Shown here piece after piece: positions 1,411 through 32,462 of a stretch of DNA of 32,582 nucleotides. Position 1 is the first letter of the stretch. Every line of letters starts with the position of its first letter. Source of the stretch: Pseudomonadota bacterium (GTDB lineage: Bacteria > Pseudomonadota > Gammaproteobacteria > Burkholderiales > Burkholderiaceae_C); assembly GCA_021808445.1 (NCBI GenBank), contig JAKBBP010000031.1, positions 1-32,582 of the forward strand, written 5' to 3'. The notes under the pieces are model-generated. The model had not been told where the DNA came from, ran no database searches, and saw only the letters and a program-made list of their open reading frames with translations. The position numbers and the translations under genes were made by a program.

Positions 1411-1418
1411 TATGCGCC

Positions 1419-17126: not shown

Positions 17127-17828
17127 ATGCAGCGCACACCTGCCTTGCTGCTGTTCGGCGGCACGGGCGCCATCGGCCGTGCGATCGCGCGAGCCTTCGA
17201 CGCCTGGAACTGGCGCGTCGTGGCGGTCAGCCGTCGCGCGGGCGCCGGGCACCTGGCCTGGGATCCGCTGGAACCGGCCGACCAGGCCGGTGGCGAGGCT
17301 GCCGCGGCCCAAGGGCCCTTTGATGCCGTGTGCTGGGCGCAGGGCATGAACGCCAACGACAGCGTCTATGACGTCGACCTGGCGCTGCACGAGCGCATGT
17401 ACCGAGCCAATTGCGCGTTCGTGCTGGCTTCCTTGCGCTTCTTGCTGGATCGAGGCCTGCTGTCCAAGCCCTCCCGCCTGTGCGTGATCAGCTCGATCTG
17501 GCAGGACATGGCCCGGCAGGACAAGCTGTCCTACTCCATGACCAAGGCCGCGCTGCGTGGCCTGGTCCTCTCTGCGGCGAACGATCTGGGACGCGATGGC
17601 CACCTGATCAACGCGGTGTTGCCCGGTGTGCTCGAGACGCCGATGACCCGCGCGAATCTTTCCCATGTCCAGATCGACAAGGTCACGTCGGGAACCCAGT
17701 TCGGCAGGCTGGCCGAGCTCGACGACGTGGCGCGCACCGTGCGCTTTCTCTGCTCGCCCGAGAACACGGGAGTGACCGGGCAATTCATCAAGGTCGACCT
17801 GGGTTTTTCCGATGTCCGAATCCTTTGA
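17127..17828 (+). CDS. SDR-family oxidoreductase, first gene of the sugar-modification operon
   Basis: NAD(P)-dependent dehydrogenase/reductase of the classical SDR type, 233 residues, cytoplasmic. The cofactor loop FGGTGAIGRAIA is at about residues 8-19; the usual NNAG is replaced by AQGM (CWAQGMNAND); the catalytic Ser is in ISSIWQD and the active-site Tyr/Lys in SYSMTK; PG and the C-terminal GQFIKVDLGF are conserved. The start is ATG 17127; GTG 17118 is possible, and the longer frame from 17004 would read through the tandem repeats. Its last 17 bases overlap the next gene, so both are probably translated together. By context it reduces or oxidises an intermediate made by the cyclase, ThDP enzyme and aldolase that follow. 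Substrate is unknown. Confidence 0.82.
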   Translation: MQRTPALLLFGGTGAIGRAIARAFDAWNWRVVAVSRRAGAGHLAWDPLEPADQAGGEAAAAQGPFDAVCWAQGMNANDSVYDVDLALHERMYRANCAFVLASLRFLLDRGLLSKPSRLCVISSIWQDMARQDKLSYSMTKAALRGLVLSAANDLGRDGHLINAVLPGVLETPMTRANLSHVQIDKVTSGTQFGRLAELDDVARTVRFLCSPENTGVTGQFIKVDLGFSDVRIL

Positions 17829-18900
17829 GGTGCACTCGTCGCTGCGCGACTACCAGGTCGACGTGGGGGCAGGGCTGCTGGATGCGCTGCTGCGCGCCGA
17901 GCCCGCGCTGCATGTGGTGTGCGACCAGCAGATGCTCCAGCATTGGCCGAGCCTGGCGCGGCGAGCCGGCGTGATTCCCGTGCTTGCCGAAGAGGCGCGC
18001 AAGGACCTCAGCAGCGTGGCGCAGATCATCGAGTCGCTGCGGCGTGCGGGAGCCACGCGCGGCAGCCGCATGCTGGCCGTCGGTGGCGGTGTGGTGCAGG
18101 ACCTGGCCACGATGGCCTCGTCGATCTACATGCGGGGCATCGACTGGGTGTATTGTCCAACCACGCTTCTGGGAATGGTCGATTCCTGCCTGGGCGGAAA
18201 ATCCTCGATCAATGTCGGCGAATTCAAGAATATTGCCGGAAATTATTTCCCACCGTCGAGGATCCTGATTGATCCGGTGTTTTGCCGCACCCTTCCCGGG
18301 GTGCAGCGCGTCGCGGGCCTGTGCGAGGCGGCGAAGATTTGTTTCTGTTCCCGCGACGAGGCCTTCGGGCATTACCAGCGCTTGATGTCCGGCGTGGACG
18401 TGTTCGATGACGAGTCGGCCCTGGTTTCATTGATTTCCCTGAGCCTGCGCACCAAGAAGGTCTTCATCGAACAGGACGAGTTCGATCAGGGAATCCGCCT
18501 GCTGCTCAACTTCGGTCATACCTTCGGCCACGCCCTGGAAGGCGCCAGCGGATTCGCGCTGAGCCACGGTATTGCCGTGGGCGTGGGCATGCTGGCTGCC
18601 ATCGACTTCGCCCGGCGCATCGGTCTGGCCGACGGGAGCGCCGCGCGCACCCTTGCACTGCGGAGTCATGTGCGCGAGCTGCTCGCGGGCGTTCCCGATC
18701 TGGCCGGGGTGCTCGGCGCCATCGATCCGGAGCAGGCCCTGCGCCGGTTCCAGTCGGACAAGAAGCACCAGACGGGACGCTATGCTGTCATCGTCGTGAA
18801 TCGTGAAGGTTTCGTGGAGCGCATCCAGTTGCCCGCGGACCCGGAAACCGCGGCGCATATACGCGGGACTTTTGGCGCAGTGAAAGAGCTTGTTGCATGA
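17812..18900 (+). CDS. 3-dehydroquinate-synthase-family sugar-phosphate cyclase
   Basis: NAD+- and metal-dependent cyclase of the AroB/2-deoxy-scyllo-inosose synthase/sedoheptulose-phosphate cyclase superfamily, 362 residues, cytoplasmic. AroB-like signatures: GGGVVQDLATMASS with the NAD-binding Asp, CPTTLLGMVDSCLGGKS, the Lys in FKNIAGN, and CEAAK with metal Glu. KKVFIEQDE, GIRLLLNFGHTFGHALE with metal and catalytic His, and LSHGIAVG with the third metal His are also present. All major dehydroquinate-synthase active-site residues I can align are kept, so a phosphorylated 7-carbon keto-sugar substrate is plausible; the exact one is not decided. Sitting in a glycan locus rather than with aroK, it is likely a dedicated cyclitol or carbasugar enzyme and not the housekeeping AroB. 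ATG 17812; the stop overlaps the next start (ATGA). Confidence 0.87.
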   Translation: MSESFEVHSSLRDYQVDVGAGLLDALLRAEPALHVVCDQQMLQHWPSLARRAGVIPVLAEEARKDLSSVAQIIESLRRAGATRGSRMLAVGGGVVQDLATMASSIYMRGIDWVYCPTTLLGMVDSCLGGKSSINVGEFKNIAGNYFPPSRILIDPVFCRTLPGVQRVAGLCEAAKICFCSRDEAFGHYQRLMSGVDVFDDESALVSLISLSLRTKKVFIEQDEFDQGIRLLLNFGHTFGHALEGASGFALSHGIAVGVGMLAAIDFARRIGLADGSAARTLALRSHVRELLAGVPDLAGVLGAIDPEQALRRFQSDKKHQTGRYAVIVVNREGFVERIQLPADPETAAHIRGTFGAVKELVA

Positions 18901-20657
18901 AATATAGCGATAAAATTGCAGACTGGTTGGTGGAGCTTGGTTATACCGACTGCTTTTTCGTGGGGGGCGGAAATATCATGCACCTCATCGAAAGCCTCAG
19001 CCGGCGCCTGCGCTGCCATGCGGTGATCCACGAAGTGGCTGCCGGCATCGCGGCCGAATACTTCAACGAGAGTTCGACGGGCCGCAAGGCGCTGGCCATG
19101 GTCACGGCCGGGCCGGGCCTGACCAACATCGTGACCGCGCTGGCGGGCGCCTACCTGGAAAGCCGCGAGTTGCTGGTGCTGGGCGGGCAGGTCAAGACGG
19201 CCGATCTCGCGCGCGGTGCGCTGCGCCAGCGTGGCATCCAGGAGATCGACGGCGTCAGTATCGCGCGCCCGGTCACGGTGGTGTCCCACCTGATGGAGGA
19301 ACCCCTGGACGCCCAGGCCTTCTCGGCTCTGGTGCGGCGAGGCAGCGAAGCCCGCAAGGGGCCGGTGTTCCTGGAGATTCCCCTGGACATCCAGGCTCGC
19401 GACGTGGATTTCGGCAACCTGGGGCCGCAATCCGCTCCCGCGGCACGTGTGCATGTGGGGGCTGAGGACCTGGCTCGCCTGGCCGACATGATCCGCCAGG
19501 CCCAGCGGCCCTTGCTGCTGCTGGGGGGAGGGGTCTCGCGAGAGGCCGCGGCGCAGGTCCACGCTCGCCTCGACTCGATGGGTATCCCGGTGGCCACCAC
19601 CTGGAATGGCGCCGATCGCGTGGACGCGGCGCACCCTCTGTACATGGGCCGCCCCAACACCTGGGGCCAGCGCAGCGCGAACCTGGTGCTGCAGCAATCG
19701 GACCTGCTGGTCGCGCTGGGCACTCGCCTGGGCATGCAGCAGACGGGTTTCAACTGGCAGGCCTTCGTGCCCTCGGGCAAGGTCGTGCAGGTCGATATCG
19801 ATGCGGCGGAGCTCTCCAAGGGCCACCCTCGGGTGGATCTGGCGCTGCATGGCGATGCCGACCAGGTGCTTCGCTATCTTGCGGAGCAGGACCTGGGCAG
19901 GCATGAGGGGTGGGAGCGCTACGCGCGCGGTGTGCGTGAGGCCGTTCCCTTGATCGAATCCGTCAACAAGACCCGGCCGGGCTATTTTTCTCCCTATGCC
20001 TTCGTCGATCGGCTGGCCGCGCTGTGCCGGGAGGACGATGTCGTGATTCCCTGCAGCAGCGGGGGGGCCTTCACGGTGATGATGCAGGTGTTCTCGCAAA
20101 AGCGGGGGCAGATCCTGGTCACCGACAAGGGCCTGGCCGCGATGGGCTACGGACTGTCGGGGGCCATCGGGGCGGCCTTCGCGCATCCCGACCGACGCGT
20201 CGTGCTGGTCGAGGGCGACGGCGGCTTCGCGCAGAATCTGCAGGAGATCGGGACCGCCGCGATCAACCGTCTGCGTCTGAAGATGTTCGTGTTCGACGAT
20301 TCCGGCTACGCGTCGATCCGCATGACCCAGCGCAGCTATTTCGGGGGGCGCTATGTCGGATGCGATCGCTCGACGGGCCTGGGGCTGCCGGACTGGGAGA
20401 AGCTGTTCCCGGTCTGGGGGGTTCCGGTGATGCGCCTGGCCCCTGGGGCCGAGCAGACCGCGGAATTCCAGCAGTTGTTCGAATCCGATGGGCCGGCTGC
20501 CTTCGTGGTGTCCATCGACCCCGAGCAGACCTATTTCCCCAAGATCAGCAGCCGGGTCACGGAGAGCGGAGCGATGGAGTCCAACCCCCTGCATCGCATG
20601 AGTCCCGATCTGGACCCGGAACTCGCCGAACGCGTGTCGGCCTACCTTCGGCCCTGA
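18897..20657 (+). CDS. Acetolactate-synthase-like thiamine diphosphate enzyme
   Basis: ThDP-dependent decarboxylase/carboligase of the acetolactate-synthase superfamily, 586 residues with the usual PYR, middle and PP domains. The catalytic Glu of the PYR domain is in VIHEVAAGIAAEYF (about residue 45), TAGPGLTN follows, and the PP domain has AAMGYGLSGAIGAA, then the cofactor motif EGDGGF. The metal-binding Asn pair that normally ends the GDG-X26-NN motif reads DD here (FVFDDSGYAS). Relatives in O-antigen loci, such as YerE of yersiniose synthesis, add a two-carbon unit from pyruvate to a keto-sugar; that role is possible here, but cofactor, donor and acceptor are unknown. It overlaps the cyclase stop by four bases and is followed after 42 bases by the aldolase. 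Confidence 0.87.
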   Translation: MKYSDKIADWLVELGYTDCFFVGGGNIMHLIESLSRRLRCHAVIHEVAAGIAAEYFNESSTGRKALAMVTAGPGLTNIVTALAGAYLESRELLVLGGQVKTADLARGALRQRGIQEIDGVSIARPVTVVSHLMEEPLDAQAFSALVRRGSEARKGPVFLEIPLDIQARDVDFGNLGPQSAPAARVHVGAEDLARLADMIRQAQRPLLLLGGGVSREAAAQVHARLDSMGIPVATTWNGADRVDAAHPLYMGRPNTWGQRSANLVLQQSDLLVALGTRLGMQQTGFNWQAFVPSGKVVQVDIDAAELSKGHPRVDLALHGDADQVLRYLAEQDLGRHEGWERYARGVREAVPLIESVNKTRPGYFSPYAFVDRLAALCREDDVVIPCSSGGAFTVMMQVFSQKRGQILVTDKGLAAMGYGLSGAIGAAFAHPDRRVVLVEGDGGFAQNLQEIGTAAINRLRLKMFVFDDSGYASIRMTQRSYFGGRYVGCDRSTGLGLPDWEKLFPVWGVPVMRLAPGAEQTAEFQQLFESDGPAAFVVSIDPEQTYFPKISSRVTESGAMESNPLHRMSPDLDPELAERVSAYLRP

Positions 20658-20699
20658 CCCAGAGCCAGCCACTTCCGACCTACTCCAAGGAGCAAGAAC

Positions 20700-21503
20700 A
20701 TGAATTCCCATGAGCGCAAGATGCTCGAGATTCTCAAGCGCGGCCGCGACGAGTTCGGCTACGTGGCCGTCAAGGCCGAATTCGAGGCCGAGGGCACCCG
20801 TACCGACGAACTGCTGCGCCTGATCGAGATCGCGCGCCGCGCGGATCTCAAGATCGGCCTGAAGATCGGCGGCTGCGAGGCCATGCGCGACCTGATCGAG
20901 AGCAAGCAGATCGGTGTCGACTACATCATCGCGCCGATGATCGAGACGCCCTATGCGTTGAGCAAGTTCATCGACGCCAAGAACAAGATCTACACGCGGG
21001 AAGAGCAGGAGGACACGCAGTTCCTGTTCAACCTGGAGACCCTCGCGGCCTTCCATCATCTGCAGGAAATGGCCGATGCCGCGAAGGCGCCCGAGGGCCT
21101 GGCGGGCCTGGTGTTCGGGCGGGTCGACTTTTCGCTTTCCCACGGCTGGTCGCGCGACGCGATCAACAGCCCCGAAGTGACGGATTACTGCCTGAAGTCC
21201 GCGCAGGCCTGCAAGGACAAGGGGCTGGACCTGGTGGTCGGCGGCGGTGTGTCCATGGACGCGCTGCCCGCGCTGCGCAGCATCGCCCAGGTGCACCTGA
21301 CCCGCTTCGAGACCCGCAAGGTCATCTTCTCCGCGAATGCGCTGGGCGGCACCGGCGCCGAGAAGGGCCTGCTGCAGGCGGTGCACTTCGAACTGCTGTG
21401 GCTGCTCAACAAGCGCGAATACTACGGGGCCATCCAGCGCGAGGACGCCAAGCGCATCGAGATGCTGGAAAGCCGCTGGCACGTGCTGTCGGACAAGCAG
21501 TAA
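20700..21503 (+). CDS. HpcH/HpaI-type aldolase/citrate-lyase-family protein
   Basis: Class II, metal-dependent aldolase or lyase fold (HpcH/HpaI, citrate-lyase beta-like TIM barrel), 267 residues, cytoplasmic. The motif [10 protein letters not shown] carries the metal Glu and [13 protein letters not shown] the metal Asp, matching the QxE...GxxDLS pattern of the family; [10 protein letters not shown] and KIGGCEAM are near the N-terminus. Characterised members join pyruvate or acyl groups to aldehydes or cleave such products. ATG 20700 is preceded by AAGGAG at 20687-20692 at ideal spacing. It may build or break the carbon skeleton used by the cyclase upstream. An alternative is a lyase in a different step; substrate is unknown. 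Confidence 0.78.
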
Positions 21504-21506
21504 CTC

Positions 21507-22541
21507 GTGGGCACGAAACCCGATCCCGCCTTGCCCGAGTCGACCCTCGGCCCCGACTCCAGGATCCTGATCACCGGGGGCACGGGGTTTTTCGGGCGCG
21601 CCCTGCTGCGCCATTGGCTGGCAGGCGAGATCGCGGGCGACGCGCCCCCCAGGGTCCTGTTGCTCAGTCGGGAGCCGGAGCGATTTCTCGCGGCCCATCC
21701 CGAACTGGCGCAACGGCCCTGGGTCCAGTGCTGGCGCGGGGACATCCTTTCCCCGGAGTCGCTTCCGCCGGAAGACGACTTCAGCCATGTGCTGCACGCT
21801 GCGGCCGACTCCACCCTCGGCCCCAGCCTTCCCGCGCTGTTGCGCCATGACCAGATCGTCCAGGGCACGCGCAACCTGCTGGACTGGGCTCTTGCCCGTT
21901 CGGTGCCGCGTTTCCTGCTGACCAGCTCCGGGGGCGCCTACGGGCCGCAGCCCGAGAACATGCCCTTCCTCGAGGAGGACTACACGGGCATGCCCGATCC
22001 GATGCGTGCGGCCAATGTCTATGGCGTGGCCAAGCGCGCCGCGGAGCACCTGTGCGCCTTGTACCAGGACCGCTGGGGCCTGGAGGTGGTGGTGGCACGC
22101 TGCTTTGCCTTCGTGGGCGAGGACCTTCCGCTGGACGTGCATTTCGCCATTGGCAATTTCGTGCGCGACGCGCTGGCCGGCGGCCACATCGAGGTGGCCG
22201 GCGACGGCAGCGCGGTGCGCTCCTACCTGGACCAGCGCGACCTCGCGCACTGGCTGATCACCCTGTTGGTGCAAGGCAGGGCGGGTCGGGCGTACAACGT
22301 AGGGTCGGATCAGGCCTTGACGATCGCCGAGCTCGCGCATCGCGTGCGCGATCTGCTGGCCCCCGGCAAGTCCGTGAACATCCGCGCTCGCGCGCCGGCG
22401 GCCGGAGCGAAGAGCCGATACGTGCCCTCGATCCGGCGGGCAGCGGAAGAACTCGGGCTGGGCGTGACGGTGGAACTGGATCAGGCCATTCGTGACATGG
22501 GTGCGCGCCTGCGTGCCAAGGCCGCGCGCGCGCCCGGCTGA
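21507..22541 (+). CDS. NAD-dependent epimerase/dehydratase (extended SDR)
   Basis: Nucleotide-sugar-modifying extended SDR (344 residues, cytoplasmic). The N-terminal NAD motif is ITGGTGFFGRALLRHW (about 22-37), the catalytic Ser in TSSGGAYGPQ, and Tyr/Lys in VYGVAKRAAEHL; the C-terminal part has GSAVRSYLDQRDLA and YNVGSDQALTIAELA, typical of sugar-nucleotide epimerases, 4,6-dehydratases and 4-reductases. The start is GTG 21507, 3 bases after the aldolase stop, so it belongs to the same operon. It probably acts on a nucleotide-activated or free intermediate of that pathway. The family does not reveal whether it is an epimerase, dehydratase or reductase; the motif TSSGGAYG is compatible with several. 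Confidence 0.85.
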   Translation: MGTKPDPALPESTLGPDSRILITGGTGFFGRALLRHWLAGEIAGDAPPRVLLLSREPERFLAAHPELAQRPWVQCWRGDILSPESLPPEDDFSHVLHAAADSTLGPSLPALLRHDQIVQGTRNLLDWALARSVPRFLLTSSGGAYGPQPENMPFLEEDYTGMPDPMRAANVYGVAKRAAEHLCALYQDRWGLEVVVARCFAFVGEDLPLDVHFAIGNFVRDALAGGHIEVAGDGSAVRSYLDQRDLAHWLITLLVQGRAGRAYNVGSDQALTIAELAHRVRDLLAPGKSVNIRARAPAAGAKSRYVPSIRRAAEELGLGVTVELDQAIRDMGARLRAKAARAPG

Positions 22542-22611: not shown

Positions 22612-23754
22612 ATGAATCACACCACCAGTCGCGAACACGCCGGCGCCGCCCAACAGCCATCGCCGTGGGCCGAGGGCCTGCCCGCCTCGACGGCCCTGCT
22701 GCTGCCGCGCAAGCGCCATCCCTATTACATCGTGGCCCCGACCTACGTGCGCACGTCGGCGGGAATCCGGGTATTGCACCTGTTGTGCAACGCGCTGAAC
22801 CGGCTCGGCGAGAACGCCTATCTGGTGATCCACCCCTACATGGGTGACCCGCACAAGGGGGTGCATCCCTATCTGGATACACCCTTGCTGGACGCGCAGC
22901 GCATGCTGCAGCACCACGAGGACGGCCTTTGCCCGATCACGATCTACCCGGAGACGGTGCGCGGCAACCCCTTCGACGCGCCCCTGGTGGTGCGTTATCT
23001 GCTGAACTTTCCCGGCTTGCTCGGCGGCGACGAGCACTACCCCGAGGACGAAGTGATGTGGGCCTACAGCGAAGCCATCGCGCAGGGAGTGGATGGGAGC
23101 TGCGAGGTGCTGTTCTTCCCGGTGTCCGATCCGGAGCAGTTCACTCCCTTCCCCCCTCAGCCGCGCAAGGGCAGTTGTTTCTATGGGGCGAAGTACCAGG
23201 CGGTGCATGGCGGCGAGTTGTTCGAAGTCACGCGCGACAGCGTGGAGATCACACGGGACCTTCCGGATTCGCCGACTCCGGCGCAGATCGCCGATCTGTT
23301 CCGGCGCTCGGAAGTGTTTTACTGCTACGAGAACTCCGCCTTGGCCATCGAGGCCCTGCTGTGCGAATGCCCGGTGGTCTTTCTCCCCAATCCCTACCTC
23401 GAGCGCATGATCGGCTTCGGGGAACTGGGAACGGATGGCATCGCCTGGGGTACCGATGCGGATCAACTGGAGCGGGCGCGTGCCACGGTGCGCCAGGCAC
23501 GCCGCAACTATCTGCGCCTGTACGACGTGCTGGAACAGCGCTTGCACGCCCTGATCGCGCAGACCCAGGCTGTGGCAGGCACCAGGACCTACGAGAGGCT
23601 CATGCACATCGAATCCATCCAGGAGCCGGGGATGGCCGCGCGCCTGGCCAGCAACTGGGAGGTGCTGCGCCACGCTGCGCGTGACCAGGGCCTGCCGCGC
23701 ACCTTGCTGCGGGTCCTGAGCTATGTGCGTCGCAAGGGGCTGCGGCTGAAATGA
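22612..23754 (+). CDS. Putative GT-B-like glycosyltransferase of the glycan locus
   Basis: A 380-residue protein I recognise only loosely. The first half opens with YYIVAPTYVRTSAGIRVLHL, a beta-alpha start with a GxR-type loop seen in GT-B glycosyltransferases, and the second half contains SEVFYCYENSALAIEALLC followed by CPVVFLPNPY, closely matching the nucleotide-sugar-binding region of GT4-like enzymes (E-sss-EA...PVV). No membrane helix is clear. The C-terminus is basic (LSYVRRKGLRLK), perhaps a membrane anchor patch. Start ATG 22612; an upstream extension reads through the preceding stop region. It lies between the epimerase (71 bases upstream) and the tandem GT2 gene. Donor and acceptor are unknown; a non-glycosyltransferase role cannot be excluded. 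Confidence 0.6.
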   Translation: MNHTTSREHAGAAQQPSPWAEGLPASTALLLPRKRHPYYIVAPTYVRTSAGIRVLHLLCNALNRLGENAYLVIHPYMGDPHKGVHPYLDTPLLDAQRMLQHHEDGLCPITIYPETVRGNPFDAPLVVRYLLNFPGLLGGDEHYPEDEVMWAYSEAIAQGVDGSCEVLFFPVSDPEQFTPFPPQPRKGSCFYGAKYQAVHGGELFEVTRDSVEITRDLPDSPTPAQIADLFRRSEVFYCYENSALAIEALLCECPVVFLPNPYLERMIGFGELGTDGIAWGTDADQLERARATVRQARRNYLRLYDVLEQRLHALIAQTQAVAGTRTYERLMHIESIQEPGMAARLASNWEVLRHAARDQGLPRTLLRVLSYVRRKGLRLK

Positions 23755-23809: not shown

Positions 23810-26404
23810 ATGACCACCTTGACCATTGTGATCCCGACTCGAAATCGGGTGGATTTTCTCAAGCGTGCCGTCGAGTCCCTGGTGGAGTCCGCCTCGCGGG
23901 CGGCCGACGACATCGAGATCCTGGTGTGCGACAACCAGTCGACCGATGCCACGCCGAAGCTATGCGCCGAGCTGATGGCGAGCCATCCTCAGCTGCGCCA
24001 TGTCCGCCATGAGCAGATGGCCACCAGCGCCGAGCAGAGTGCCTACATGGGTCTGCGCACTCTCAAGCAGCAGGCGCGCAGTGAATATTTCTGGATTTTC
24101 GGCGACGACGACCTGGCCTATCCCGATGCATGCGCGCAAATTCTCCGGGCCCTGCGGGACGGTTACGATTTCGTGCTCGCGGGGCTGGAGGTCGGCGATC
24201 CCCGCGATCCCGACGCGGGTTCCGAGGGCACGCCTGCGCATGGGTACTACCGTGTACCCCCACCCTACGTCGCCTATCTGAACGGCGCGGAGCTGTTCGC
24301 CGATTTCGGGCTGGTGACCGCCACGACCACGCTGTCCTGCCTGTGCGGCAGGCTTGCGCAACTCGATCTCGAGGCCTGGGCGCAGCTCCTGGAGGTATCC
24401 CCGATCTACAGCCATTCCGCGGCGATGCTGCTGAGCTATCGGGATCGGCCGGCAGCGGTTCTTGCGGGGGCTCAATTGCGCTACACGCTCAACTCGGTGG
24501 CCGATGAACTCGCCAGGCTGCACGAGGCGGGCCTGACCCTTGCCAGACCGAGCTACTGGCCCTACACGACGGGTCTGCTGCGTCAGCTTCGATTCCTGCT
24601 CGCGCGCATGCCCCAGGCGGCAGCCTTCTTCGACTCCGTGGAGGAGGTCCACCTGTCCAAGGACAGCCTGAACCTCAAGCACGGCACGCTCGCGGGCTTT
24701 CTGGTCGAAATGCACATGCGCCAGGCCAGGCTTCACGCCGAATCCGCTCAGGAGGTCGAAAGCCTGACCCCGGAGATGTTGTCGGAGCTGCGCCAGTTCC
24801 TGGGCGAATTCCTGGGAGGGACTCGCCGGGCCGAGCTACTCGATCTGTGCTCCCGGCTCGAGGGGCATGCGCGGGCCCCCGCGCAGGAGCTCGACGAACT
24901 CCTGCGCGCCCTCGATGAGGTGGAGATGGAGGAATTGCGAGCTCGCTTCGAGCGCAGCCCCGGGCCGGTGCTGACCGAGGCTTCGGGGCCGCTGGCGCGC
25001 AAGCGCCTGCGCGGCGTGCGCGTGGCCGACTGCCGCTCGCGCCTGACGGTGGCCATCCCCACCTACAACCGCAGGGCTTCGGTGCTGCGCCAGCTGCACG
25101 CGCTGGCTTCGCTGGGGGCGCTGACGGACCCCGAGACCGAGGTGCTGGTGGGCGACAACGCCAGCGACGACGGTACGCGGGAGGCCCTGGACGAGTTCGC
25201 ACGGCAGCATCCCCACGGCCTGCGCGTGGTGCACTACGCCGAGCATGTGGGCAGCGCGGAGGAGAACTGCGCGCGCCTGGTTCGCGAAGCCATCGGCTGC
25301 TATGTCTGGCTGCTCAGCGACGATGACGTGATCGTTCGGCCCGCCTATGCGCGCCTGCGCGCCCTGGTGGCCCGGGGCGAGGCCGACACGATGGCCAGTT
25401 TCGTGTTCGACACCGCGGCCGAGAAGGACGGCGAGCGCCTGGTGAACCCGCAGACCCACACCATGGACCGGGCCCTGCACGGTGTGCTCGACGCCATCGA
25501 ATCCGAGGGCAGGGTGGATTTTCGCGGTTTCATCGAGCGTCACGGCCTGGCGCAGTACGGGGCCCTGATCTCCCGCTACGTGGTGCGCCGCGACTTGATC
25601 ACCGGCGCCATCGACCCCTACTTGCCGATCTCGTCCATCTACAGCCATGTGTTCGGGCTGCTGGAGCGCTTGCGGGACGAATCCGTCATGTTCGTGGCCG
25701 AGCCGCTGGTCTGGCGGCGCAGCTCGGAAGTGCTGGACCGCTTCGCGCGCATGGCGCGCGAGCGCGGCTGGTATTTCTACCGCCCCTGGACCCGGGGGCT
25801 CGTGGACCTCGCGCAGGTCTTCGAGCAACGCAGCGGGACGCCGCCAGGCTGGCTGCGCCATGTGCGTGAACGCGGCGCTGGCGGGGTGACCTACGGCCTG
25901 GTGGAGGACATGGTGCACCAACTCGGTCGGCAACTGGGCTACGCGCTGCTGCGACACGACCCCGCCGAACTCCTGCCGGCCGAGGACCGCGAGCGGATCG
26001 TGGGGTATTTTCGTGCCTGCGGCTTGCACGAGGAGGGCCTGGCGAGATTCGAGCAAGTCGCGACCATGGTCGCCGAGGCCGTGGACAAGGCCCAGGGCGC
26101 CGGGGACTATCGCGTCGACGTGGAGGAGTTCGCGCAATTGTGGATCCAGGTGCGGGAGCTGCCCTCCCGGATGCTTGCCTCGGCGAGTCCGCCGGAGCCG
26201 GCTGCACCGCCGTCCGCGCAGCTGCTGTTCGAGCCGGCGGCGTCCTCGAGCTGGTTGCAGCAGCCGGCCAGACACATCGCCGCCCGTCTCGCGCGCATGC
26301 AGGTGGAGCATCCCGAGCGTTACCAGCGCATCGTGGCCTGGAAAAATCGCCATGCCATGTTGCGCTTGCTTTCGCGCCGACTCATGAAGATGGGCCGCGG
26401 GTAG
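23810..26404 (+). CDS. Tandem-domain GT2 glycosyltransferase, 864 aa
   Basis: Cytoplasmic protein with two GT2 catalytic domains. Domain 1 (about 1-260) opens with LTIVIPTRNRVDFLKRAVES and has the metal motif FGDDDLAYPDA; domain 2 (about 409-670) opens with LTVAIPTYNRRASVLRQL, with LLSDDDVIVRPA. Between them lies an alpha-helical, glutamate-rich linker (about 300-405) with EEVHLSKDSLNLKHG and AQELDELLRALDEVEMEEL. A helical tail follows. Both domains resemble the abequosyltransferase-like GT2 subgroup (G/SDDD) and are close to the 342-aa protein at 28082-29110. Two sugars may be added in succession by one polypeptide. It starts at ATG 23810. The acceptor and sugars are unknown, though the CDP-sugar genes nearby make a dideoxy or deoxy sugar donor plausible. 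Confidence 0.8.
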   Translation: MTTLTIVIPTRNRVDFLKRAVESLVESASRAADDIEILVCDNQSTDATPKLCAELMASHPQLRHVRHEQMATSAEQSAYMGLRTLKQQARSEYFWIFGDDDLAYPDACAQILRALRDGYDFVLAGLEVGDPRDPDAGSEGTPAHGYYRVPPPYVAYLNGAELFADFGLVTATTTLSCLCGRLAQLDLEAWAQLLEVSPIYSHSAAMLLSYRDRPAAVLAGAQLRYTLNSVADELARLHEAGLTLARPSYWPYTTGLLRQLRFLLARMPQAAAFFDSVEEVHLSKDSLNLKHGTLAGFLVEMHMRQARLHAESAQEVESLTPEMLSELRQFLGEFLGGTRRAELLDLCSRLEGHARAPAQELDELLRALDEVEMEELRARFERSPGPVLTEASGPLARKRLRGVRVADCRSRLTVAIPTYNRRASVLRQLHALASLGALTDPETEVLVGDNASDDGTREALDEFARQHPHGLRVVHYAEHVGSAEENCARLVREAIGCYVWLLSDDDVIVRPAYARLRALVARGEADTMASFVFDTAAEKDGERLVNPQTHTMDRALHGVLDAIESEGRVDFRGFIERHGLAQYGALISRYVVRRDLITGAIDPYLPISSIYSHVFGLLERLRDESVMFVAEPLVWRRSSEVLDRFARMARERGWYFYRPWTRGLVDLAQVFEQRSGTPPGWLRHVRERGAGGVTYGLVEDMVHQLGRQLGYALLRHDPAELLPAEDRERIVGYFRACGLHEEGLARFEQVATMVAEAVDKAQGAGDYRVDVEEFAQLWIQVRELPSRMLASASPPEPAAPPSAQLLFEPAASSSWLQQPARHIAARLARMQVEHPERYQRIVAWKNRHAMLRLLSRRLMKMGRG

Positions 26405-26454
26405 GCATCGAGATCCAGGCTAACATCGCCCATTTTCCTGCTTGCAATAGACCC

Positions 26455-27246
26455 ATGAGCGCACTTGGTACGGCCATCGGCGATCTGCTCGACAGTCTGG
26501 GCGCATGGCGTCTGTGGAGCCTGCTGGGCTGGCTGGAGATCCGTCAGCGCTACGCTCGTTCCAAGATCGGCCCCTTCTGGCTCACGATCAGCATGGGCGT
26601 GCTGGTGGGGACGATGGGCGTGGTGTATGGCGCGCTGTTCGCCCAGAAACTCGCCGACTATCTCCCCATGGTCGCGATCGGCCTAGTGTCCTGGGGCCTG
26701 TTCTCGGGCACCGTGAGCGAGGGCTGCAATGCCTACATCGCCAGCGCCAACTACATTCGCCAGGTGGCGACGCCTCGGCTGGTGTACATGCTGCAGGTTG
26801 CCTGGCGCAATCTCGTGATCTTCGCCCACAATTTCTGCATCGTGATCGTCGTGCTCATCGTGTTCGGAGTGCACGACTGGACGACCTTGCCGCTGTTCCT
26901 GCCCGGCCTGGCGCTGTTCGTGCTCAACGCAACCTGGATCGCCGTGCTGACGGGTCTTCTCGCGGCACGCTTTCGCGACCTGCCGCAGATCGTCAACGCC
27001 CTGTTGCAAGTGGCGTTTTACGTCACGCCCATCCTGTTCCATGGGGAAATGCTCAGCGCCAGGCATCGCTGGATCGTCGAGTTCAATCCCCTGGCCTATC
27101 TGATCGACGTGGTCCGCCAGCCTTTGATGGGGGTAGCCACGCCCCTGTCCACCTGGGCGCTGGTCTGTGCCATGACCGTGGTCGGCTGGCTGCTCGCGCT
27201 GGCCCTGACCGGGCGTTACCACAAGCGCATTCCCTACTGGATCTGA
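26455..27246 (+). CDS. wzm: Wzm-type ABC-2 polysaccharide export permease
   Basis: Inner-membrane channel subunit of an ABC-2 polysaccharide exporter, 263 residues with six predicted membrane helices, the normal Wzm/KpsM size. The N-terminal amphipathic segment RQRYARSKIGPFWLTISMGV is the conserved start of the ABC-2 domain, followed by the gate helix; ARFRDLPQIVNALLQVAFYVTPIL and FNPLAYLIDVVRQPL are the family's C-terminal signatures. Start ATG 26455, 50 bases after the GT gene. The partner ATPase follows after 51 bases. It likely moves undecaprenyl-linked glycan across the membrane together with Wzt. Confidence 0.9.
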   Translation: MSALGTAIGDLLDSLGAWRLWSLLGWLEIRQRYARSKIGPFWLTISMGVLVGTMGVVYGALFAQKLADYLPMVAIGLVSWGLFSGTVSEGCNAYIASANYIRQVATPRLVYMLQVAWRNLVIFAHNFCIVIVVLIVFGVHDWTTLPLFLPGLALFVLNATWIAVLTGLLAARFRDLPQIVNALLQVAFYVTPILFHGEMLSARHRWIVEFNPLAYLIDVVRQPLMGVATPLSTWALVCAMTVVGWLLALALTGRYHKRIPYWI

Positions 27247-27297: not shown

Positions 27298-28062
27298 ATG
27301 GCCGCAAGTGTCTCGCTTCACAATGTCCATCTCGATCTGCCGATCTTCGACATCTCGGCACAGTCGCTCAAGAAGCGCGTCATGCGCATGGGCCGGCGCA
27401 ACAGCATCGCGGAGGACAACTCCGGGGTGATCGTCGTTCGCGCCATCGACGGACTGGACCTGGAGCTGCGCAGCGGGGATCGCCTGGGCCTGATCGGGCA
27501 CAACGGTGCCGGCAAGAGCACCCTGCTGCGGGTGATGGCGGGCATCTATCCTCCGACGGCAGGGGAGTTGCGCGTGAGCGGTCGCAGCGTGCCCCTGCTG
27601 GACATCGCCCTCGGCATGGACGACCTGTCGACGGGGCGCCAGAACATCCGGCTTCGCGGGCTGCTGCTGGGCATGGACAACGCCGAGATCAAGCGCAAGA
27701 CCGAGGAGATCGCCGAGTTCACCGAACTGGGCGATTATCTCGATCTGCCCTTGCGAACCTACTCCAACGGCATGCGCCTGCGCCTGGCCTTCGCCATTTC
27801 CACCGCGGTCGACGCCGACATCCTGCTGCTGGACGAGGTGCTGGGCGTGGGCGACGCCAGCTTCCAGGAAAAGGCCAATCAACGCCTGCGCGAACTCCAC
27901 GAACGCGCCGACATCGTCGTGCTCGCGATCCACTCGGACGACACCATCCGCGCCAGCTGCAACAAGGTGCTGTGGATGGAATCCGGCAGGGCCCGCATGC
28001 TGGGCCCGGTGGAGGAGGTGCTCAGCGCCTACGCGCAGCGCATGACGCTGCCGCAGGGCTGA
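27298..28062 (+). CDS. wzt: Wzt-type ABC exporter ATP-binding protein, short form
   Basis: Cytoplasmic ATPase that drives the Wzm channel, 254 residues. Walker A is GHNGAGKST (about residue 66-74), the signature loop is YSNGMRLRLAFA, and Walker B is ADILLLDEVLGVGD; the long N-terminal extension (SVSLHNVHLDLPIFD) is typical of polysaccharide exporters. The C-terminal carbohydrate-binding domain of long Wzt proteins, which reads a chain-terminating cap, is absent, so this is a KpsT/short-Wzt type. Start ATG 27298. The next gene is convergent and its stop is about 20 bases away. Transport without cap recognition is thus expected, unless another protein supplies it. Confidence 0.9.
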   Translation: MAASVSLHNVHLDLPIFDISAQSLKKRVMRMGRRNSIAEDNSGVIVVRAIDGLDLELRSGDRLGLIGHNGAGKSTLLRVMAGIYPPTAGELRVSGRSVPLLDIALGMDDLSTGRQNIRLRGLLLGMDNAEIKRKTEEIAEFTELGDYLDLPLRTYSNGMRLRLAFAISTAVDADILLLDEVLGVGDASFQEKANQRLRELHERADIVVLAIHSDDTIRASCNKVLWMESGRARMLGPVEEVLSAYAQRMTLPQG

Positions 28063-28086: not shown

Positions 28087-29110
28087 GTCGCGCCAGCTTG
28101 TCGCGCAGGAAGTACAGGCCTCGCATCAGGTCGCCCGAGGCCACGCGCCCGATGGCGGTGCTGGCCATGCCCCAGGCGATGGCGGCAGGCCGCGGCAGGG
28201 TGAACACCGGATCCACCAGCACCCAATAGCGCAGGTAACAGCCGAGCACCCGGCGGAAGCGCTGCCTGGCCGCGGCCAGGTCGACGGTGGGCTTCAGGCG
28301 CTGCATCAGCACCTGCTGCGGGAAATACTGGGTCAGCATGCGCCGCTCCAGCGCCAGGCGTACATCCCGCGGCAGGCCCTGCTCCTCGTGCCGCAGCAGG
28401 ATGTCGCGCAGATTGGCGACGAAGACCTTGGAGAAGTCGTAGCCGCCGCCGTTGTTCTTGCGATAGGCCAGGCCGTAGCGACGGTCCCGCAGGTAGCGGC
28501 CCGGGCCCCTCGCGGCCAGCAGGTACAGGTTGACGTGCACCAGGTTGCTGCCGCAGAAATCCTCGGCGTTCACGCCGGCACAGGACGCACGCCGGTAGAC
28601 GATGCCCGACAGCAGGGTGATCAGCGCGCCCACGTGGCGCACGAAGCCGCGCAGGGTGGCTTCGACGCGGTGGCTGTCCCGGCTGTACGGCAACTCGGCC
28701 GCGTGGTCGCCCTCGAAGCCGTAGGAGCGCAGATGCAGCAGGGCCACGTCGTCGCCTTGCAGGAAATCCAGCAGTCGCCGCAGCACACCGTCCAGCGGCA
28801 GGTCGTCATCCCCCAGGATCCACACGTACCTGCCGCGCGCCAGATTGTGGCAGGCGGCGACGTTGCGGTCGGAGCCCAGGTTCTCGGCGTGGCGCACGTG
28901 GCGAATCGGCAGCCCGGGGCGCTGCCAGGAGGCGATGACCTGCGGTGTGTCGTCCTCGGCGTGGTTGTCGCACACCAGCAGCTCGATCGCCTCGGGCGGC
29001 AGCGCGGCGCGCTGCTCCTGCAGCACCTGCAGGAGCTCGGCAAGGAAAGGCGCGCGATTCCAGGTGGGAATCGCGATGGTCAGCAGCGGCGTCGTCGCAG
29101 GCTCAGTCAA
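28082..29110 (-). CDS. GT2 glycosyltransferase, abequosyltransferase-like
   Basis: Cytoplasmic GT-A enzyme, 342 residues. [18 protein letters not shown] opens the nucleotide-binding domain; [11 protein letters not shown] and [13 protein letters not shown] carry the DxD metal site. The middle (about 150-250) has [10 protein letters not shown] and [13 protein letters not shown]. In length and pattern it resembles RfbV-type abequosyl/dideoxyhexosyl transferases, which suits its operon with CDP-sugar genes. The start is TTG 29110, because no ATG precedes the first beta strand; it overlaps rfbH by 8 bases, so it is translationally coupled. It is the last gene of the rfbF-rfbG-rfbH-GT operon and probably transfers the sugar they make. 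The particular sugar is inferred from context. Confidence 0.82.
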
Positions 29111-30452
29111 AGCGCAGACCGAGGAAGGTCTCGATGCTGACGGCCACGTGCTCGAGCATCTCCTGGGTGAGTCCGGGGTACACGCCGACCCAGAAGGTCT
29201 GGTTCATGATGGTGTCGGTGTTGTCCAGCGGCGAGGCCACGCGCACATTGCGCCCGGCCATGTAGGGTTGGCGCAGCAGATTGCCGGCGAACAGCAGGCG
29301 CGTGCCCACCTTTTGCTGGTCCAGGTAGGTCAGCAGGTCCACCCGAGACACCGGCGCGTTGTCGCGCAGGGTCATGGGGAAGCCGAACCAGGAGGGTTCC
29401 GAACCCGGGGTGGCGTGCGGCAGGATCAGGAACTCCTCGCAGGAGCGCAGACGCTCGTGCAGCCAGCGGAAATTGGCGCGCCGGGCGGCGATGAACTCCT
29501 CCACGCGGTCCATCTGCGCCAGCGCGCAGGCGGCCTGCATATCGGTGATCTTGAGGTTGTAGCCCAGGTGCGAGTAGGTGTACTTGTGGTCGTAGCCGTA
29601 GGGCAGCTCGCCGAGCTTCCAGCAAAAGCGCTTGCCGCAGGTGTTGTCCTTGCCCGGCTGGCAATAGCAGTCGCGCCCCCAGTCGCGGAACGAGTCCATG
29701 ATCAGCTTGAGCTCGTCGTTGTTGGTGAACACCGCGCCGCCTTCGCCCATGGTGATGTGGTGGGCGGGGTAGAAGCTCAGGGTGCCGATGTCGCCGAAGG
29801 TGCCGACCTTGCGCCCCTGGTAGGTCGCGCCCAGGGCGTCGCAGCAATCCTCCACCAGCCACAGGCCGTGCTTGCGGCACAGGGCCGTGACCACCTCCAG
29901 GTTGTAGGGGTTGCCCAGCGTGTGGGCCAGCATGATCGCCTTCGTCTTGGGCGAGATGGCGGCTTCGAGCAAGTCGGCGCGCACGTTGTAGGTGCCGAGT
30001 TCCACGTCCACCAGCACCGGAACCGCGCCGAACTGCAGGATGGGGTTCACCGTGGTGGGAAAGCCCGCGGCCACGCCGATCACCTCGTCGCCGGGGCGGA
30101 TCGCGCGATCGCCCAGCTTGGGCGAGGTCAGCGCCGAGAAGGCCACCAGGTTGGCGGAGGAGCCGGAGTTCACGGTGGACACGTGGCGCACGCCCAGGAA
30201 CTCGGCCAGGCGGGCCTCGAACAGGTCGTTGAAACGCCCCGTGGTCAGCCAGCCGTCCAGCGAGGCCTCGACCATGTTGCGCAGCTCGGCCGCGCCGATC
30301 ACCTTGCCCGAAGGGGGCACCACCGCCTGGCCCGGCGTGAAGCCGCGCGGCGCGAACTCCAGCTCGGCGTAGCGATCGACCAGTTGCAGGATTTCCTTGC
30401 GCAGGCGCTGCTTGTCGCCCTGCACGATCTCGACCGGACTCAGCTTGTCCAT
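29103..30452 (-). CDS. rfbH: CDP-6-deoxy-4-keto-hexulose 3-dehydrase (E1), RfbH
   Basis: PMP-dependent [2Fe-2S] enzyme that removes the C-3 hydroxyl of CDP-4-keto-6-deoxyglucose on the way to CDP-3,6-dideoxyhexoses, 449 residues. It has an aspartate-aminotransferase fold: [27 protein letters not shown] with cofactor Asp, and at the usual Schiff-base lysine site a His ([13 protein letters not shown]), which is the E1 hallmark. Cys of the second CC pair, then [11 protein letters not shown], gives C-X57-C-X1-C-X7-C, the known cluster motif. A SD-like GAGGAA precedes ATG 30452. The usual partner reductase E3 (ddhD) is not visible in the window. It overlaps rfbG by 13 bases and the GT by 8. Confidence 0.95.
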
Positions 30453-31528
30453 GTTTGGTATTCCTCGATTTGTTCCAGCGTGAACCTACGCATGTCGGTG
30501 CCCCGTGCCTGCTCGGCGTGCCATTGCACGATGCGATCCAGCGCCGTGCCCAGGTCCCAGCGCGGGCGCCAGCCCAGGCGCGCGCGCGCCTTGGAGCAGT
30601 CGAGTTTCAGCGACGCGGCCTCGTGCTGCTGGGCCTGCGCGTCGAGTTCCCAGGCGGCTCCGCCGGGCCATTTGCCGGCCAGTTGTTCCACCAGCCAGCT
30701 CACGGGGCGCGCATCCTCGTCCCCGGGGCCGAAGTTCCAGCCCTCGGCGTGGGCCGCGCCGGCTTCGAGCAGCCCGCGGGCCAGCACCAGATAGCCCGAC
30801 AGCGGCTCCAGCACATGCTGCCAGGGACGGATGGCGTTGGGGTGGCGGATGCGCACGGGGCGACGCTCGCCGAAGGCGCGGATCATGTCGGGGATCAGCC
30901 GATCCATGGCCCAGTCGCCGCCGCCGATCACGTTGCCGGCGCGCGCCGAGGCCACCGCCACGCAGCCGCCCTGCGCAGCGGGGCGGTTGAAGAAGGAGCG
31001 ACGGTAGGCCGAGGTGACCAGTTCCGCGCAGCCCTTGCTGTTGCTGTAGGGATCGAAGCCGCCCATGGGCTCGTTCTCCCGATAGCCCCAGAGCCACTCC
31101 TGGTTCTCGTAGCACTTGTCGCTGGTGACCACCACGACCGCGCGCACCGAGGGGCAGTTGCGCACGGCCTCGAGCAGGTGCACGGTTCCCATGACGTTGG
31201 TCGAGTAGGTCTCGACCGGATTCGCGTAGGAATACAGTACCAGCGGCTGCGCGGCCATGTGGATCACCACTTCGGGCTGGCTGCGCTGCATCCGTGCCTG
31301 CAGGGTCGCGAGCTCGCGGATGTCGCCGATGAACGAATCCATGCCCTCGGCCACGCGGGCCTGCTCGAACAGGCTGGGGCGGGTCGGCGCTTCCAGCGCA
31401 TAGCCGGAAAGCTCGGCACCCAGGGCCTGCAGCCACAGGCTGAGCCAGGAGCCCTTGAAGCCCGTGTGGCCCGTGAGGAAGACCTTGCGGCCTTGCCAGA
31501 ACTCCGGGCTTATTTCCAGACTTTCCAC
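30440..31528 (-). CDS. rfbG: CDP-glucose 4,6-dehydratase, RfbG
   Basis: NAD-dependent extended SDR that converts CDP-glucose to CDP-4-keto-6-deoxyglucose, 362 residues, cytoplasmic. The N-terminal [17 protein letters not shown] motif is specific to this subfamily, [11 protein letters not shown] contains the active-site Thr/Asp/Lys-type dehydratase residues, and [11 protein letters not shown] gives the catalytic Tyr/Lys. [15 protein letters not shown] and WNFGPGDED are further family signatures. Start GTG 31528. It overlaps rfbF by 19 bases and rfbH by 13, making a coupled operon. With rfbF and rfbH it gives the CDP-3,6-dideoxyhexose branch point. Confidence 0.95.
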
Positions 31529-32280
31529 GGCGCATTGCCGCTCGACCAGAGCGACTCCAGGTGGTTCTTGTCCCGCAGCGTGTCCATGGGCTGCCAGAAA
31601 CCGTTGTGGAAAAAGGCCTGCAGCTTGCGCTCGATGGCGAGCTGCTCCAGGGGGGCGCGCTCCCAGGGCATGTCGTCGCCTTCGATGTAGTCGATCACCT
31701 TGGGCGACAGCACGAAAAAGCCGCCGTTGATCCAGCCGGCTTCGCCGTGGGGCTTTTCCAGGAAACGCTGGACCATGTTGCCTTGCAGGTCGAGGGCGCC
31801 GAAGCGACCGGGCGGCTGGGTCGCCGTCATGGTGGCCAGGCCTCCGTGGCTGCGGTGGAAGGCGATGGAGCCGGCGATGTCGATGTCGCCCACGCCGTCG
31901 CCGTAGGTCATGCAGAAGTCCTCGTCCTTCACGTACTCGGCGACGCGCTTCAGGCGCCCGCCGGTCTGCGTGGATTCGCCGGTGTCCACCAGGGTCACGC
32001 GCCAGGGCTCGGCCTTGCGCTGGTGCACCTGCATGCTGTTGCTGGCCATGTCGAAGGTCACGTCGGACATGTGCAGGAAGTAGTTGGCGAAGTATTCCTT
32101 GATCACATATCCCTTGTAGCCGCAGCAGATCACGAAATCATTCACCCCGTGGGCGGAATAGATTTTCATGATGTGCCAGAGAATCGGTTTGCCCCCGATC
32201 TCGATCATGGGCTTGGGGCGTTGACTGGTCTCCTCGGAAATACGGGTTCCGAGACCTCCGGCAAGTATGACCGCTTTCAT
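31510..32280 (-). CDS. rfbF: Glucose-1-phosphate cytidylyltransferase, RfbF
   Basis: Makes CDP-glucose from glucose-1-phosphate and CTP, first step of CDP-deoxysugar synthesis; 256 residues, cytoplasmic. The nucleotidyltransferase signature [20 protein letters not shown] is at residues 6-25, then [25 protein letters not shown] carries the metal-binding Asp. [20 protein letters not shown] is typical of the family. The start is ATG 32280; an upstream extension to 32385 has no support. It is first in the minus-strand operon with rfbG, rfbH and a GT2; the about 180-base gap upstream holds its promoter, including an AT-rich patch at 32335-32349, but I could not define the boxes. Confidence 0.95.
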
Positions 32281-32372
32281 GTGTCGCTTCGGCTGGTTGT
32301 GGCAGTCGCGGCCAGGGATCGGCGCGCTGCAGCAAATTTTTTCAATGTAGCACAGGGGTTTTCGATTCCGGG

Positions 32373-32396: not shown

Positions 32397-32462
32397 TACC
32401 CTGGCGATGCCTGCGCGCAGGCTGTCCCCGCGGAGCGCGCCCGCGCTCCAGAGGCCGTTCCT

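What the first reader, a model, noticed from the sequence alone, without database searches (positions are those of the whole stretch)
17127..22541. Five-gene SDR / cyclase / ThDP enzyme / aldolase / epimerase module in a glycan locus
Seen: five genes run in one direction with overlaps or tiny gaps (17-base overlap, ATGA overlap, 42-base gap with a strong RBS, 3-base gap). Known: dehydroquinate-synthase-family cyclases make carbocycles from 7-carbon sugar phosphates or glucose-6-P, ThDP carboligases add acyl units, and HpcH/HpaI aldolases join pyruvate-type units to aldehydes. Inferred: the aldolase builds a keto-sugar acid (or similar), the cyclase closes it to a carbocycle, and the ThDP enzyme and SDRs branch and reduce it, giving an unusual cyclitol or branched sugar for the surface glycan. 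I know of no described pathway with exactly this set.
Basis: partly seen in the sequence, partly recalled or inferred. Interest (0 to 1): 0.78.

Follow-up and report, generated by a model that had tools for sequence, protein, structure and literature searches.

The report
Assembly line for a branched surface sugar
Five linked genes most likely build a long carbon side chain and attach it to an activated deoxy sugar for the cell surface, with a shikimate-type "cyclase" apparently reused to strip a phosphate rather than to make a ring.

Summary
The five-gene run is real. Its SDR, AroB-like protein (CYC), ThDP enzyme and HpcH/HpaI-like protein (ALD) occur together in 40 of 80 fetched loci from six phyla. 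It is best read as a donor-building and branching module for a CDP-activated 4-C-branched 3,6-dideoxy sugar (caryophyllose/yersiniose type), not a cyclitol pathway. The missing partners lie in the same window on the other strand: RfbF, RfbG and RfbH, which make CDP-4-keto-3,6-dideoxyglucose. The ThDP enzyme's nearest solved relative is 8rph, by recall JanthE, a YerE-like enzyme. The telling result is a cassette swap: ALD goes with SDR+CYC or with a HAD phosphatase, never both (58, 13 and 0 of 80; 60 CYC after follow-up), with 7 switches as the minimum on the best ALD tree. So ALD probably makes a phosphorylated 2-keto-3-deoxy acid; HAD removes the phosphate, while CYC+SDR eliminate it and reduce, leaving a methyl end like that of caryophyllose's side chain. 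Product and lack of ring closure are inferred. The organism has its own AroB. My searches found no paper giving an AroB-like protein this role, but key papers were not readable. New variant of a known kind.

The parts
17127..17828 (+). Classical SDR; proposed reductase of the 6-keto-7-deoxy acid left by the AroB-like step (inferred)
   Evidence: Pfam adh_short_C2 94.5 bits; directly 5' of CYC in 51 of 51
17812..18900 (+). AroB-like protein (CYC); proposed phosphate lyase on a DAHP-like 2-keto-3-deoxy acid phosphate
   Evidence: TIGR04425 262 bits, below its cut-off of 400; TIGR01357 aroB 228, below 305; AroB active-site residues kept in 50-51 of 51 sequences, window included
18897..20657 (+). 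YerE-like ThDP enzyme; proposed decarboxylative transfer of the acyl chain to C4 of CDP-4-keto-3,6-dideoxyglucose
   Evidence: best solved relative 8rph 280.5 bits, next acetolactate synthase 227.7; catalytic Glu E46 and GDG motif conserved wherever aligned
20700..21503 (+). HpcH/HpaI-superfamily protein (ALD); proposed pyruvate aldolase making the 2-keto-3-deoxy acid phosphate
   Evidence: Pfam HpcH_HpaI 34.8 bits; model pLDDT 90.9; Foldseek SbnG first (E 3e-8, TM-score 0.59), then pyruvate kinases, RipC and HpcH/HpaI aldolases
21507..22541 (+). Extended SDR (EPI); proposed YerF-like reductase of the new side-chain ketone
   Evidence: Pfam Epimerase 119.8; EPI 30, alternative type C13 35, both 0, neither 15 of 80 loci; a relative directly follows the ThDP gene in L140 and L161, clusters without ALD
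29103..30452 (-). RfbH, CDP-4-keto-6-deoxyglucose 3-dehydratase
   Evidence: NF011936 745.8 bits, cut-off 423
30440..31528 (-). RfbG, CDP-glucose 4,6-dehydratase
   Evidence: TIGR02622 493.9 bits, cut-off 278.45
31510..32280 (-). RfbF, glucose-1-phosphate cytidylyltransferase
   Evidence: TIGR02623 473.4 bits, cut-off 300.25, on residues 101-355 of the 31510-32580 ORF
22612..23754 (+). Conserved protein after the module, relatives in 9 other loci (cluster 15); unassigned, perhaps a glycosyltransferase
   Evidence: cluster 15; no Pfam match
23810..26404 (+). Double GT2 glycosyltransferase
   Evidence: Pfam Glycos_transf_2, two stretches
26140..27246 (+). Wzm-like ABC permease for polysaccharide export (true start probably later: match begins at residue 108)
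   Evidence: NF050109 257.5 bits, below its cut-off of 380
27298..28062 (+). Wzt-like ABC ATPase
   Evidence: NF050108 288.4 bits, below its cut-off of 400

Best explanation
The five genes, with RfbF-RfbG-RfbH on the other strand, make a CDP-activated 3,6-dideoxyhexose carrying a hydroxylated alkyl branch on C4, of the caryophyllose type. Proposed order: (1) RfbF, RfbG and RfbH make CDP-4-keto-3,6-dideoxyglucose (families shown; activity established for these families). (2) ALD joins pyruvate to a phosphorylated aldehyde, most simply D-erythrose 4-phosphate, giving a 2-keto-3-deoxy acid phosphate like DAHP but probably its C4 epimer (inferred). (3) The AroB-like protein removes the phosphate by the AroB oxidise-eliminate-reduce cycle, without lasting ring closure, leaving a 6-keto-7-deoxy acid, and the neighbouring SDR reduces the 6-ketone (inferred from the swap with a phosphatase, the kept DAHP-site residues and the fixed SDR-CYC pairing). 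(4) The YerE-like ThDP enzyme decarboxylates the 2-keto acid and adds its acyl carbanion to the C4 ketone of the CDP sugar (reaction type described for YerE and ErwE; here inferred). (5) The extended SDR reduces the new ketone, as YerF does for yersiniose (YerF recalled; here inferred). The sugar then enters a surface polysaccharide, perhaps exported by the linked Wzm/Wzt-like transporter (inferred).
For: RfbF/G/H over their cut-offs in the window; at least one of them (profile score 90 or more, a lenient line) in 54 of the 65 ThDP-bearing loci among 80. ThDP enzyme nearest to 8rph. Review PMC12247030, section 2.1 read: YerE and ErwE work on CDP-4-keto-3,6-dideoxyglucose (ErwE shown in vitro with an analogue); ErwE prefers longer hydroxylated 2-keto acids and MMAR_2332 is said to be similar. 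Swap: CYC 58, HAD 13, both 0, neither 9 of 80; two of the nine proved to have CYC. In Acidobacteria SDR-CYC and HAD stand in the same slot of ALD--ThDP. Seven CYC/HAD changes are the minimum on the best ALD tree; well-supported branches alone force 3 for HAD. RfbH-centred set in the window's order: CYC (250 bits or more) in 4 of 52 sites, the same 4 that have ALD; 13 other ThDP sites have no ALD, CYC, HAD, or NeuB of 500 bits or more. RfbH-centred Mycobacterium set: ThDP in 19 of 19; a candidate 2-keto-acid-forming gene in 18 of 19 (ALD 9, NeuB 7, enolase-superfamily 2); CYC and HAD never together (one representative of each of the NeuB, enolase and HAD families checked by Pfam). AroB active-site residues kept. 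Caryophyllose's branch is D-altro-1,3,4,5-tetrahydroxyhexyl (PMC5706390 passage), and its synthesis takes the chain from a digitoxose-configured block (PMC7821131 passage), which is what steps 2-4 predict.
Against: No product structure is known for this organism. ALD has only weak superfamily similarity (34.8 bits; no NCBIfam match; no significant PDB sequence match), and by a recalled alignment the HpaI pyruvate arginine R70 is a lysine (K55). AroB products normally close to a ring, so an open intermediate must be protected or trapped. L066, L078 and L135 have ALD and ThDP but neither CYC nor HAD in the stretch read. L119 has ThDP, SDR and CYC but no ALD found in 19.9 kb. 15 of 80 loci show no ThDP gene and 18 of 80 no RfbF/G/H in the stretch fetched; many are cut and L017's ThDP lies just beyond (L134), but L014, L024, L025 and L029 are 16.8 kb long without one. 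One of the 13 HAD calls (L035, 99 bits, opposite strand) is weak. The HAD profile was built from loci without CYC, so unrelated phosphatases could be missed. I could not check the named caryophyllose producers.
Confidence: 0.64

Rival explanations
1. The AroB-like protein does close a ring. It acts after the ThDP step on the phosphorylated branch, so the product is a CDP sugar with a carbocyclic branch or a fused bicyclic sugar like bradyrhizose or caryose.
For: AroB chemistry residues are kept; ring closure is the default fate of AroB products (known); carbocycle-bearing surface sugars exist (bradyrhizose, PMC9912281 passages; caryose structure recalled).
Against: The residues recalled as binding DAHP's carboxylate in AroB (K215, R229 here) are invariant in 51 of 51, which suits a free keto acid. 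HAD fills the same slot with the same ThDP type in Acidobacteria, so both cassettes probably feed one donor to ThDP. The text of the ORS285 bradyrhizose locus paper does not contain dehydroquinate, thiamine or aldolase, which is weak because its eleven genes are shown in a figure.
Confidence: 0.2
2. The cyclase makes a free cyclitol or quinate-like residue and the ThDP enzyme belongs to a separate pathway.
For: TIGR04425 is named 'sugar phosphate phospholyase (cyclizing)'. The ThDP protein has a distant match to the inositol enzyme IolD, 163 bits against a cut-off of 715.
Against: CYC of 250 bits or more occurs at 4 of 52 RfbH sites, always with ALD and ThDP, and at 0 of 32 RfbH sites without ThDP. 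No window gene that I scanned passed the cut-off of a cyclitol family in the hits shown.
Confidence: 0.08
3. The AroB-like protein is a spare 3-dehydroquinate synthase.
For: AroB-type domains and residues.
Against: Own AroB elsewhere scores 397.6 against a cut-off of 305; CYC scores 228. CYC and AroB agree at 106 of 348 aligned positions, and 15 further positions are fixed in CYC but differ in AroB.
Confidence: 0.03

Closest known systems
Yersiniose A pathway (YerE/YerF on CDP-4-keto-3,6-dideoxyglucose)
   Same: CDP-glucose genes, YerE-like ThDP enzyme and extended SDR
   Different: YerE uses pyruvate and should need no donor-building genes; 13 ThDP sites in the window's order lack ALD, CYC, HAD and strong NeuB
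Caryophyllose in Mycobacterium marinum lipooligosaccharide (ThDP enzyme MMAR_2332)
   Same: C6 branch with a methyl end on C4 of a 3,6-dideoxyhexose; MMAR_2331, 2332 and 2333 mutants accumulate the precursor without caryophyllose; Mycobacterium loci with m0-ThDP-ALD-SDR-CYC order exist (m0 not scanned itself, its counterpart c11 is a GT2)
   Different: The M. marinum cluster itself could not be read here; the role of an AroB-like protein there is a prediction
Erwiniose (ErwE) and gastriose (MygE)
   Same: ThDP enzymes reported to use longer 2-keto acids
   Different: Different branches (recalled); their donor-making genes were not examined
3-dehydroquinate synthase AroB and sugar phosphate cyclases
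   Same: Domains and active-site residues
   Different: Below the aroB cut-off; paired with an SDR; not found together with the HAD phosphatase

Membership tests
3-dehydroquinate synthase (AroB, TIGR01357) | score over the curated cut-off of 305 | tested here: not met
   P0002 228.4 bits; own AroB 397.6
3-dehydroquinate synthase (AroB, TIGR01357) | catalytic and substrate-binding residues | tested here: met
   48 of 63 positions conserved in CYC match own AroB, among them E172, K175, K215, R229, N233, H236, H240, H252 (51 of 51, window included) and K318 (50 of 51); in 7 divergent CYC sequences these stand in 6 or 7 of 7; residue roles recalled
TIGR04425 AroB-related phospholyase (cyclizing) | score over the cut-off of 400 | tested here: not met
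   262 bits; the Mycobacterium form 324.7
YerE-like ThDP lyase | closest to a YerE-like enzyme rather than acetolactate synthase | tested here: met
   8rph 280.5 against 227.7 bits; that 8rph is JanthE is recalled and fits its CDG motif
YerE-like ThDP lyase | linked CDP-4-keto-3,6-dideoxyglucose genes | tested here: met
   RfbF/G/H in the window
YerE-like ThDP lyase | carboligation to a keto sugar | not testable with these tools
   needs an enzyme assay
HpcH/HpaI class II pyruvate aldolase | Pfam PF03328 over its gathering score | tested here: met
   34.8 against 25 bits
HpcH/HpaI class II pyruvate aldolase | metal-ligand Glu and Asp | tested here: met
   E113 and D143 invariant in 20 of 20 aligned; equivalence to HpaI E149/D175 recalled, by eye
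HpcH/HpaI class II pyruvate aldolase | pyruvate-binding arginine (HpaI R70) | tested here: inconclusive
   K55 invariant at the apparent position; alignment to HpaI recalled, by eye

The most novel reading that the evidence does not exclude
A widespread AroB-fold enzyme works as a non-cyclizing sugar-phosphate lyase. With a dedicated SDR it turns a phosphorylated 2-keto-3-deoxy acid into a methyl-ended donor acid for YerE-like ThDP enzymes. It can be exchanged, slot for slot, with a HAD phosphatase, so bacteria choose between methyl and hydroxymethyl ends of branched surface sugars by swapping a cassette. This would explain the origin of caryophyllose's side chain.
Probability: 0.5. Interest if true: 0.76.

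Novelty: new variant of a known kind. Interest (0 to 1): 0.62.

Why it matters
YerE-like ThDP enzymes are of interest as biocatalysts for tertiary alcohols, but for the vast majority of more than 200 predicted cases no sugar structure is known (PMC12247030). The gene logic found here predicts the side chain from cluster content: no donor genes suggests pyruvate; aldolase plus HAD a hydroxymethyl end; aldolase plus AroB-like and SDR a methyl end; NeuB plus HAD another, perhaps longer, chain. It also proposes a route to caryophyllose's C6 branch and a new use of a shikimate-pathway fold.

Tried and rejected
Cyclitol or carbocycle as first choice: set lower because of the HAD swap and the conserved carboxylate-site residues. 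Spare aroB: rejected. Bradyrhizose as the product: the text of the ORS285 paper does not contain dehydroquinate, thiamine, aldolase, epimerase or acetolactate, so no link could be made. Housekeeping AroB as a false CYC hit: L161 at 219 bits is a shikimate kinase-AroB fusion by eye and own AroB scores 226, so CYC calls in the RfbH-centred set use 250 bits or more; all 58 CYC calls in the 80 loci are 271 or more. RfbH's reductase partner in the own genome: two PF00970 hits; the better (L188) has a ferredoxin-reductase layout but passed no NCBIfam cut-off, so this is left open. M. marinum gene annotations in papers: not found in the passages read. A structure job for the AroB-like protein was unfinished and is not used. 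One search was a mis-set alignment and is not used. Searches picked a wrong reading frame for AroB and were replaced. The one paper found (PMC4275268, a Burkholderia genome comparison with each term once) was seen as a listing only.
Full report
What is there. The five genes exist as described, on the + strand at 17127-22541, with 17-base and ATGA overlaps and 42-base and 3-base gaps. Families: classical SDR; AroB-like protein (called CYC here); ThDP enzyme; HpcH/HpaI-superfamily protein (ALD); extended SDR (EPI). The window comes from a draft genome (92% complete) whose nearest relatives at ALD are a proteobacterial MAG (98%) and a Thiomonas MAG (96%).

On the minus strand lie three genes over their curated cut-offs: RfbH 29103-30452 (745.8 bits), RfbG 30440-31528 (493.9) and RfbF about 31510-32280 (473.4). 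Together they are the established route to CDP-4-keto-3,6-dideoxyglucose, the acceptor of YerE-like enzymes. Around them are an O-antigen-ligase-like protein, a WcaJ-type sugar transferase, a ManC-type enzyme, glycosyltransferases and a Wzm/Wzt-like exporter.

Relatives. One scan of genome contigs with ALD gave 196 relatives, of which the best 80 were kept. They come from Pseudomonadota, Acidobacteriota, Actinomycetota, Cyanobacteriota, Vulcanimicrobiota and Bdellovibrionota. I clustered ORFs, built profiles and mapped all 80. SDR+CYC+ThDP+ALD occur in 40 of 80, many contigs being short; ThDP in 65 of 80; at least one of RfbF/G/H in 54 of those 65 at a lenient 90-bit line. Of the 15 without ThDP many are cut and L017's lies just beyond its stretch (L134), but L014, L024, L025 and L029 are 16.8 kb long without one. 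ALD is patchy: 5 of 399 genomes of the window's order including its own, 4 of 198 of a Mycobacterium genus sample and 2 of 391 of a Bradyrhizobium family sample, each count including the centre genome, at strict E-value lines; this is as expected of surface-glycan genes.

The cassette swap. In the 80 loci CYC is found in 58 and a HAD phosphatase (phosphoglycolate-phosphatase-like, two representatives) in 13, both in 0, neither in 9 (Fisher p 1.6e-9, which overstates because loci are related). One HAD call, L035, is weak (99 bits, opposite strand). Of the nine, L010 has SDR+CYC farther along its contig and L072 has a CYC seen by tblastn; L007, L037, L068, L070 and L082 are short or cut; L066 and L078 have neither. 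In Acidobacteria the order is ALD-SDR-CYC-ThDP in most mapped loci and ALD-HAD-ThDP in L012, L023 and L042. On an ALD tree of 84 rows (79 of the 80 loci, the window and four Mycobacterium regions; 64 CYC, 13 HAD, 2 none, 5 unknown; L063 dropped for want of a called ALD ORF) the labels CYC and HAD change at least 7 times on the best tree; well-supported branches alone force 3 changes for HAD. The HAD profile came from loci without CYC, so other phosphatase families could be missed; one weak HAD (37 bits) lies in a CYC locus, L028.

Samples not chosen by ALD. RfbH was sought in 399 genomes of the window's order: 50 have it, at 52 places. All 52 were mapped (48 fetched, some clipped by short contigs; three; and the window): 4 have ALD, all 4 with SDR and CYC; 3 have a strong NeuB-like synthase, 2 of these with HAD and none with CYC; 13 more have a ThDP gene but no ALD, CYC, HAD or strong NeuB (weak NeuB scores of 126 and 71 bits in L165 and L183); 32 have no ThDP gene and none of these has CYC. 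The fifth ALD genome of the order (L135) is not among the 50 with RfbH over the line and has neither CYC nor HAD beside ALD. In a Mycobacterium genus sample 20 of 396 genomes have RfbH; 19 regions were fetched, one left out at a contig end; five of the 19 are genomes also seen in the 80 loci (and contig lengths). All 19 have a ThDP gene. Nine have ALD, seven a NeuB-like gene, two an enolase-superfamily gene, and one (L119) has SDR+CYC but no ALD found (one representative each of NeuB, enolase and HAD checked by Pfam). CYC occurs in seven, HAD in six, never both; a gene whose representative is a FGGY-type sugar kinase is in all seven CYC regions and no other. NeuB enzymes make 2-keto-3-deoxy acids, and enolase-superfamily sugar-acid dehydratases do so by dehydration (family knowledge; the dehydratase role here is inferred). 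So nearly every ThDP cluster of the Mycobacterium set has a candidate source of a 2-keto acid of its own.

How it probably works. A 2-keto-3-deoxy acid phosphate from ALD loses its phosphate either to HAD or to CYC+SDR, and the ThDP enzyme adds the decarboxylated chain to C4 of CDP-4-keto-3,6-dideoxyglucose. CYC keeps the AroB site: E172, K175, K215, R229, N233, H236, H240 and H252 are invariant in 51 of 51 sequences (window included), and K318 in 50 of 51. K215 and R229 match residues that I recall as binding the substrate's carboxylate in AroB, which suits a free keto acid acted on before the ThDP step. Elimination on a DAHP-like C7 acid leaves a 6-keto-7-deoxy chain; reduction by the partner SDR gives 3,7-dideoxyheptulosonate. 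Its acyl part is the branch of caryophyllose, 1,3,4,5-tetrahydroxyhexyl with a methyl end (PMC5706390 passages). The natural chain is D-altro; a chemical synthesis used a digitoxose-configured block (PMC7821131 passages), D-ribo by recall. DAHP is D-arabino (recalled), so a dedicated aldolase of opposite C4 selectivity would be needed, which could be why a separate ALD is kept. That chain of reasoning is inference.

Limits. No product is known for this organism. The M. marinum cluster was not readable; papers say only that MMAR_2331, 2332 and 2333 mutants accumulate the precursor without caryophyllose (PMC5706390 passages). The claim that an AroB-like role is undescribed rests on ten searches of an open-access library, of which only 15 and 93 named dehydroquinate synthase (no hit; one hit, PMC4275268, seen as a listing), and on the review PMC12247030 (section 2.1, part 1 of the references and passages; no mention of cyclase or phosphatase). 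Krug 2024, Steitz 2022 and Lanza 2024 were not held. Loci with rfbG but no rfbH (14 of 80; some cut) may branch CDP-4-keto-6-deoxyglucose instead.

Verdict. A real, conserved and interpretable module: a new variant of YerE-type branched-sugar biosynthesis, with a testable and unusual role for an AroB-like protein.

Noticed in passing
L055, L056, L059, L048, L054 (rfbF-rfbG-ALD-SDR-CYC-EPI-ThDP, no rfbH called): Bradyrhizobium, Rhizobium, Polaromonas and Methylotenera loci carry the module without RfbH in the stretch read, suggesting a branched sugar that keeps its C3 hydroxyl, perhaps like the 3-O-methylated sugar reported for Rhodopseudomonas palustris (PMC9912281 passage, whose wording is ambiguous).
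   Followed up: no
L118, L121, L124-L128 and L173, L177, L181: NeuB-like synthase beside a ThDP gene and RfbH, with HAD in 5 of the 7 Mycobacterium and 2 of the 3 order regions: apparently a parallel donor route. The representative scanned also has a C-terminal cupin domain.
   Followed up: partly
L115, L120: Enolase-superfamily protein, mannitol-dehydrogenase-like protein, IMPase-like phosphatase and a further small protein beside the ThDP gene.
   Followed up: partly
L040, L041, L045, L049, L050, L051: HAD-type loci with two or three radical SAM proteins (one type with SPASM, one with a B12-binding domain) and a C-methyltransferase-like protein beside ALD; perhaps further remodelling of the branch (families checked on representatives).
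   Followed up: no
window 1412-4681: Long P-type copper ATPase with heavy-metal-associated domains near both ends (three stretches scored), next to the glycan locus.
   Followed up: no
L135 (G1124): Locus with two different ThDP genes and ALD but neither CYC nor HAD.
   Followed up: no
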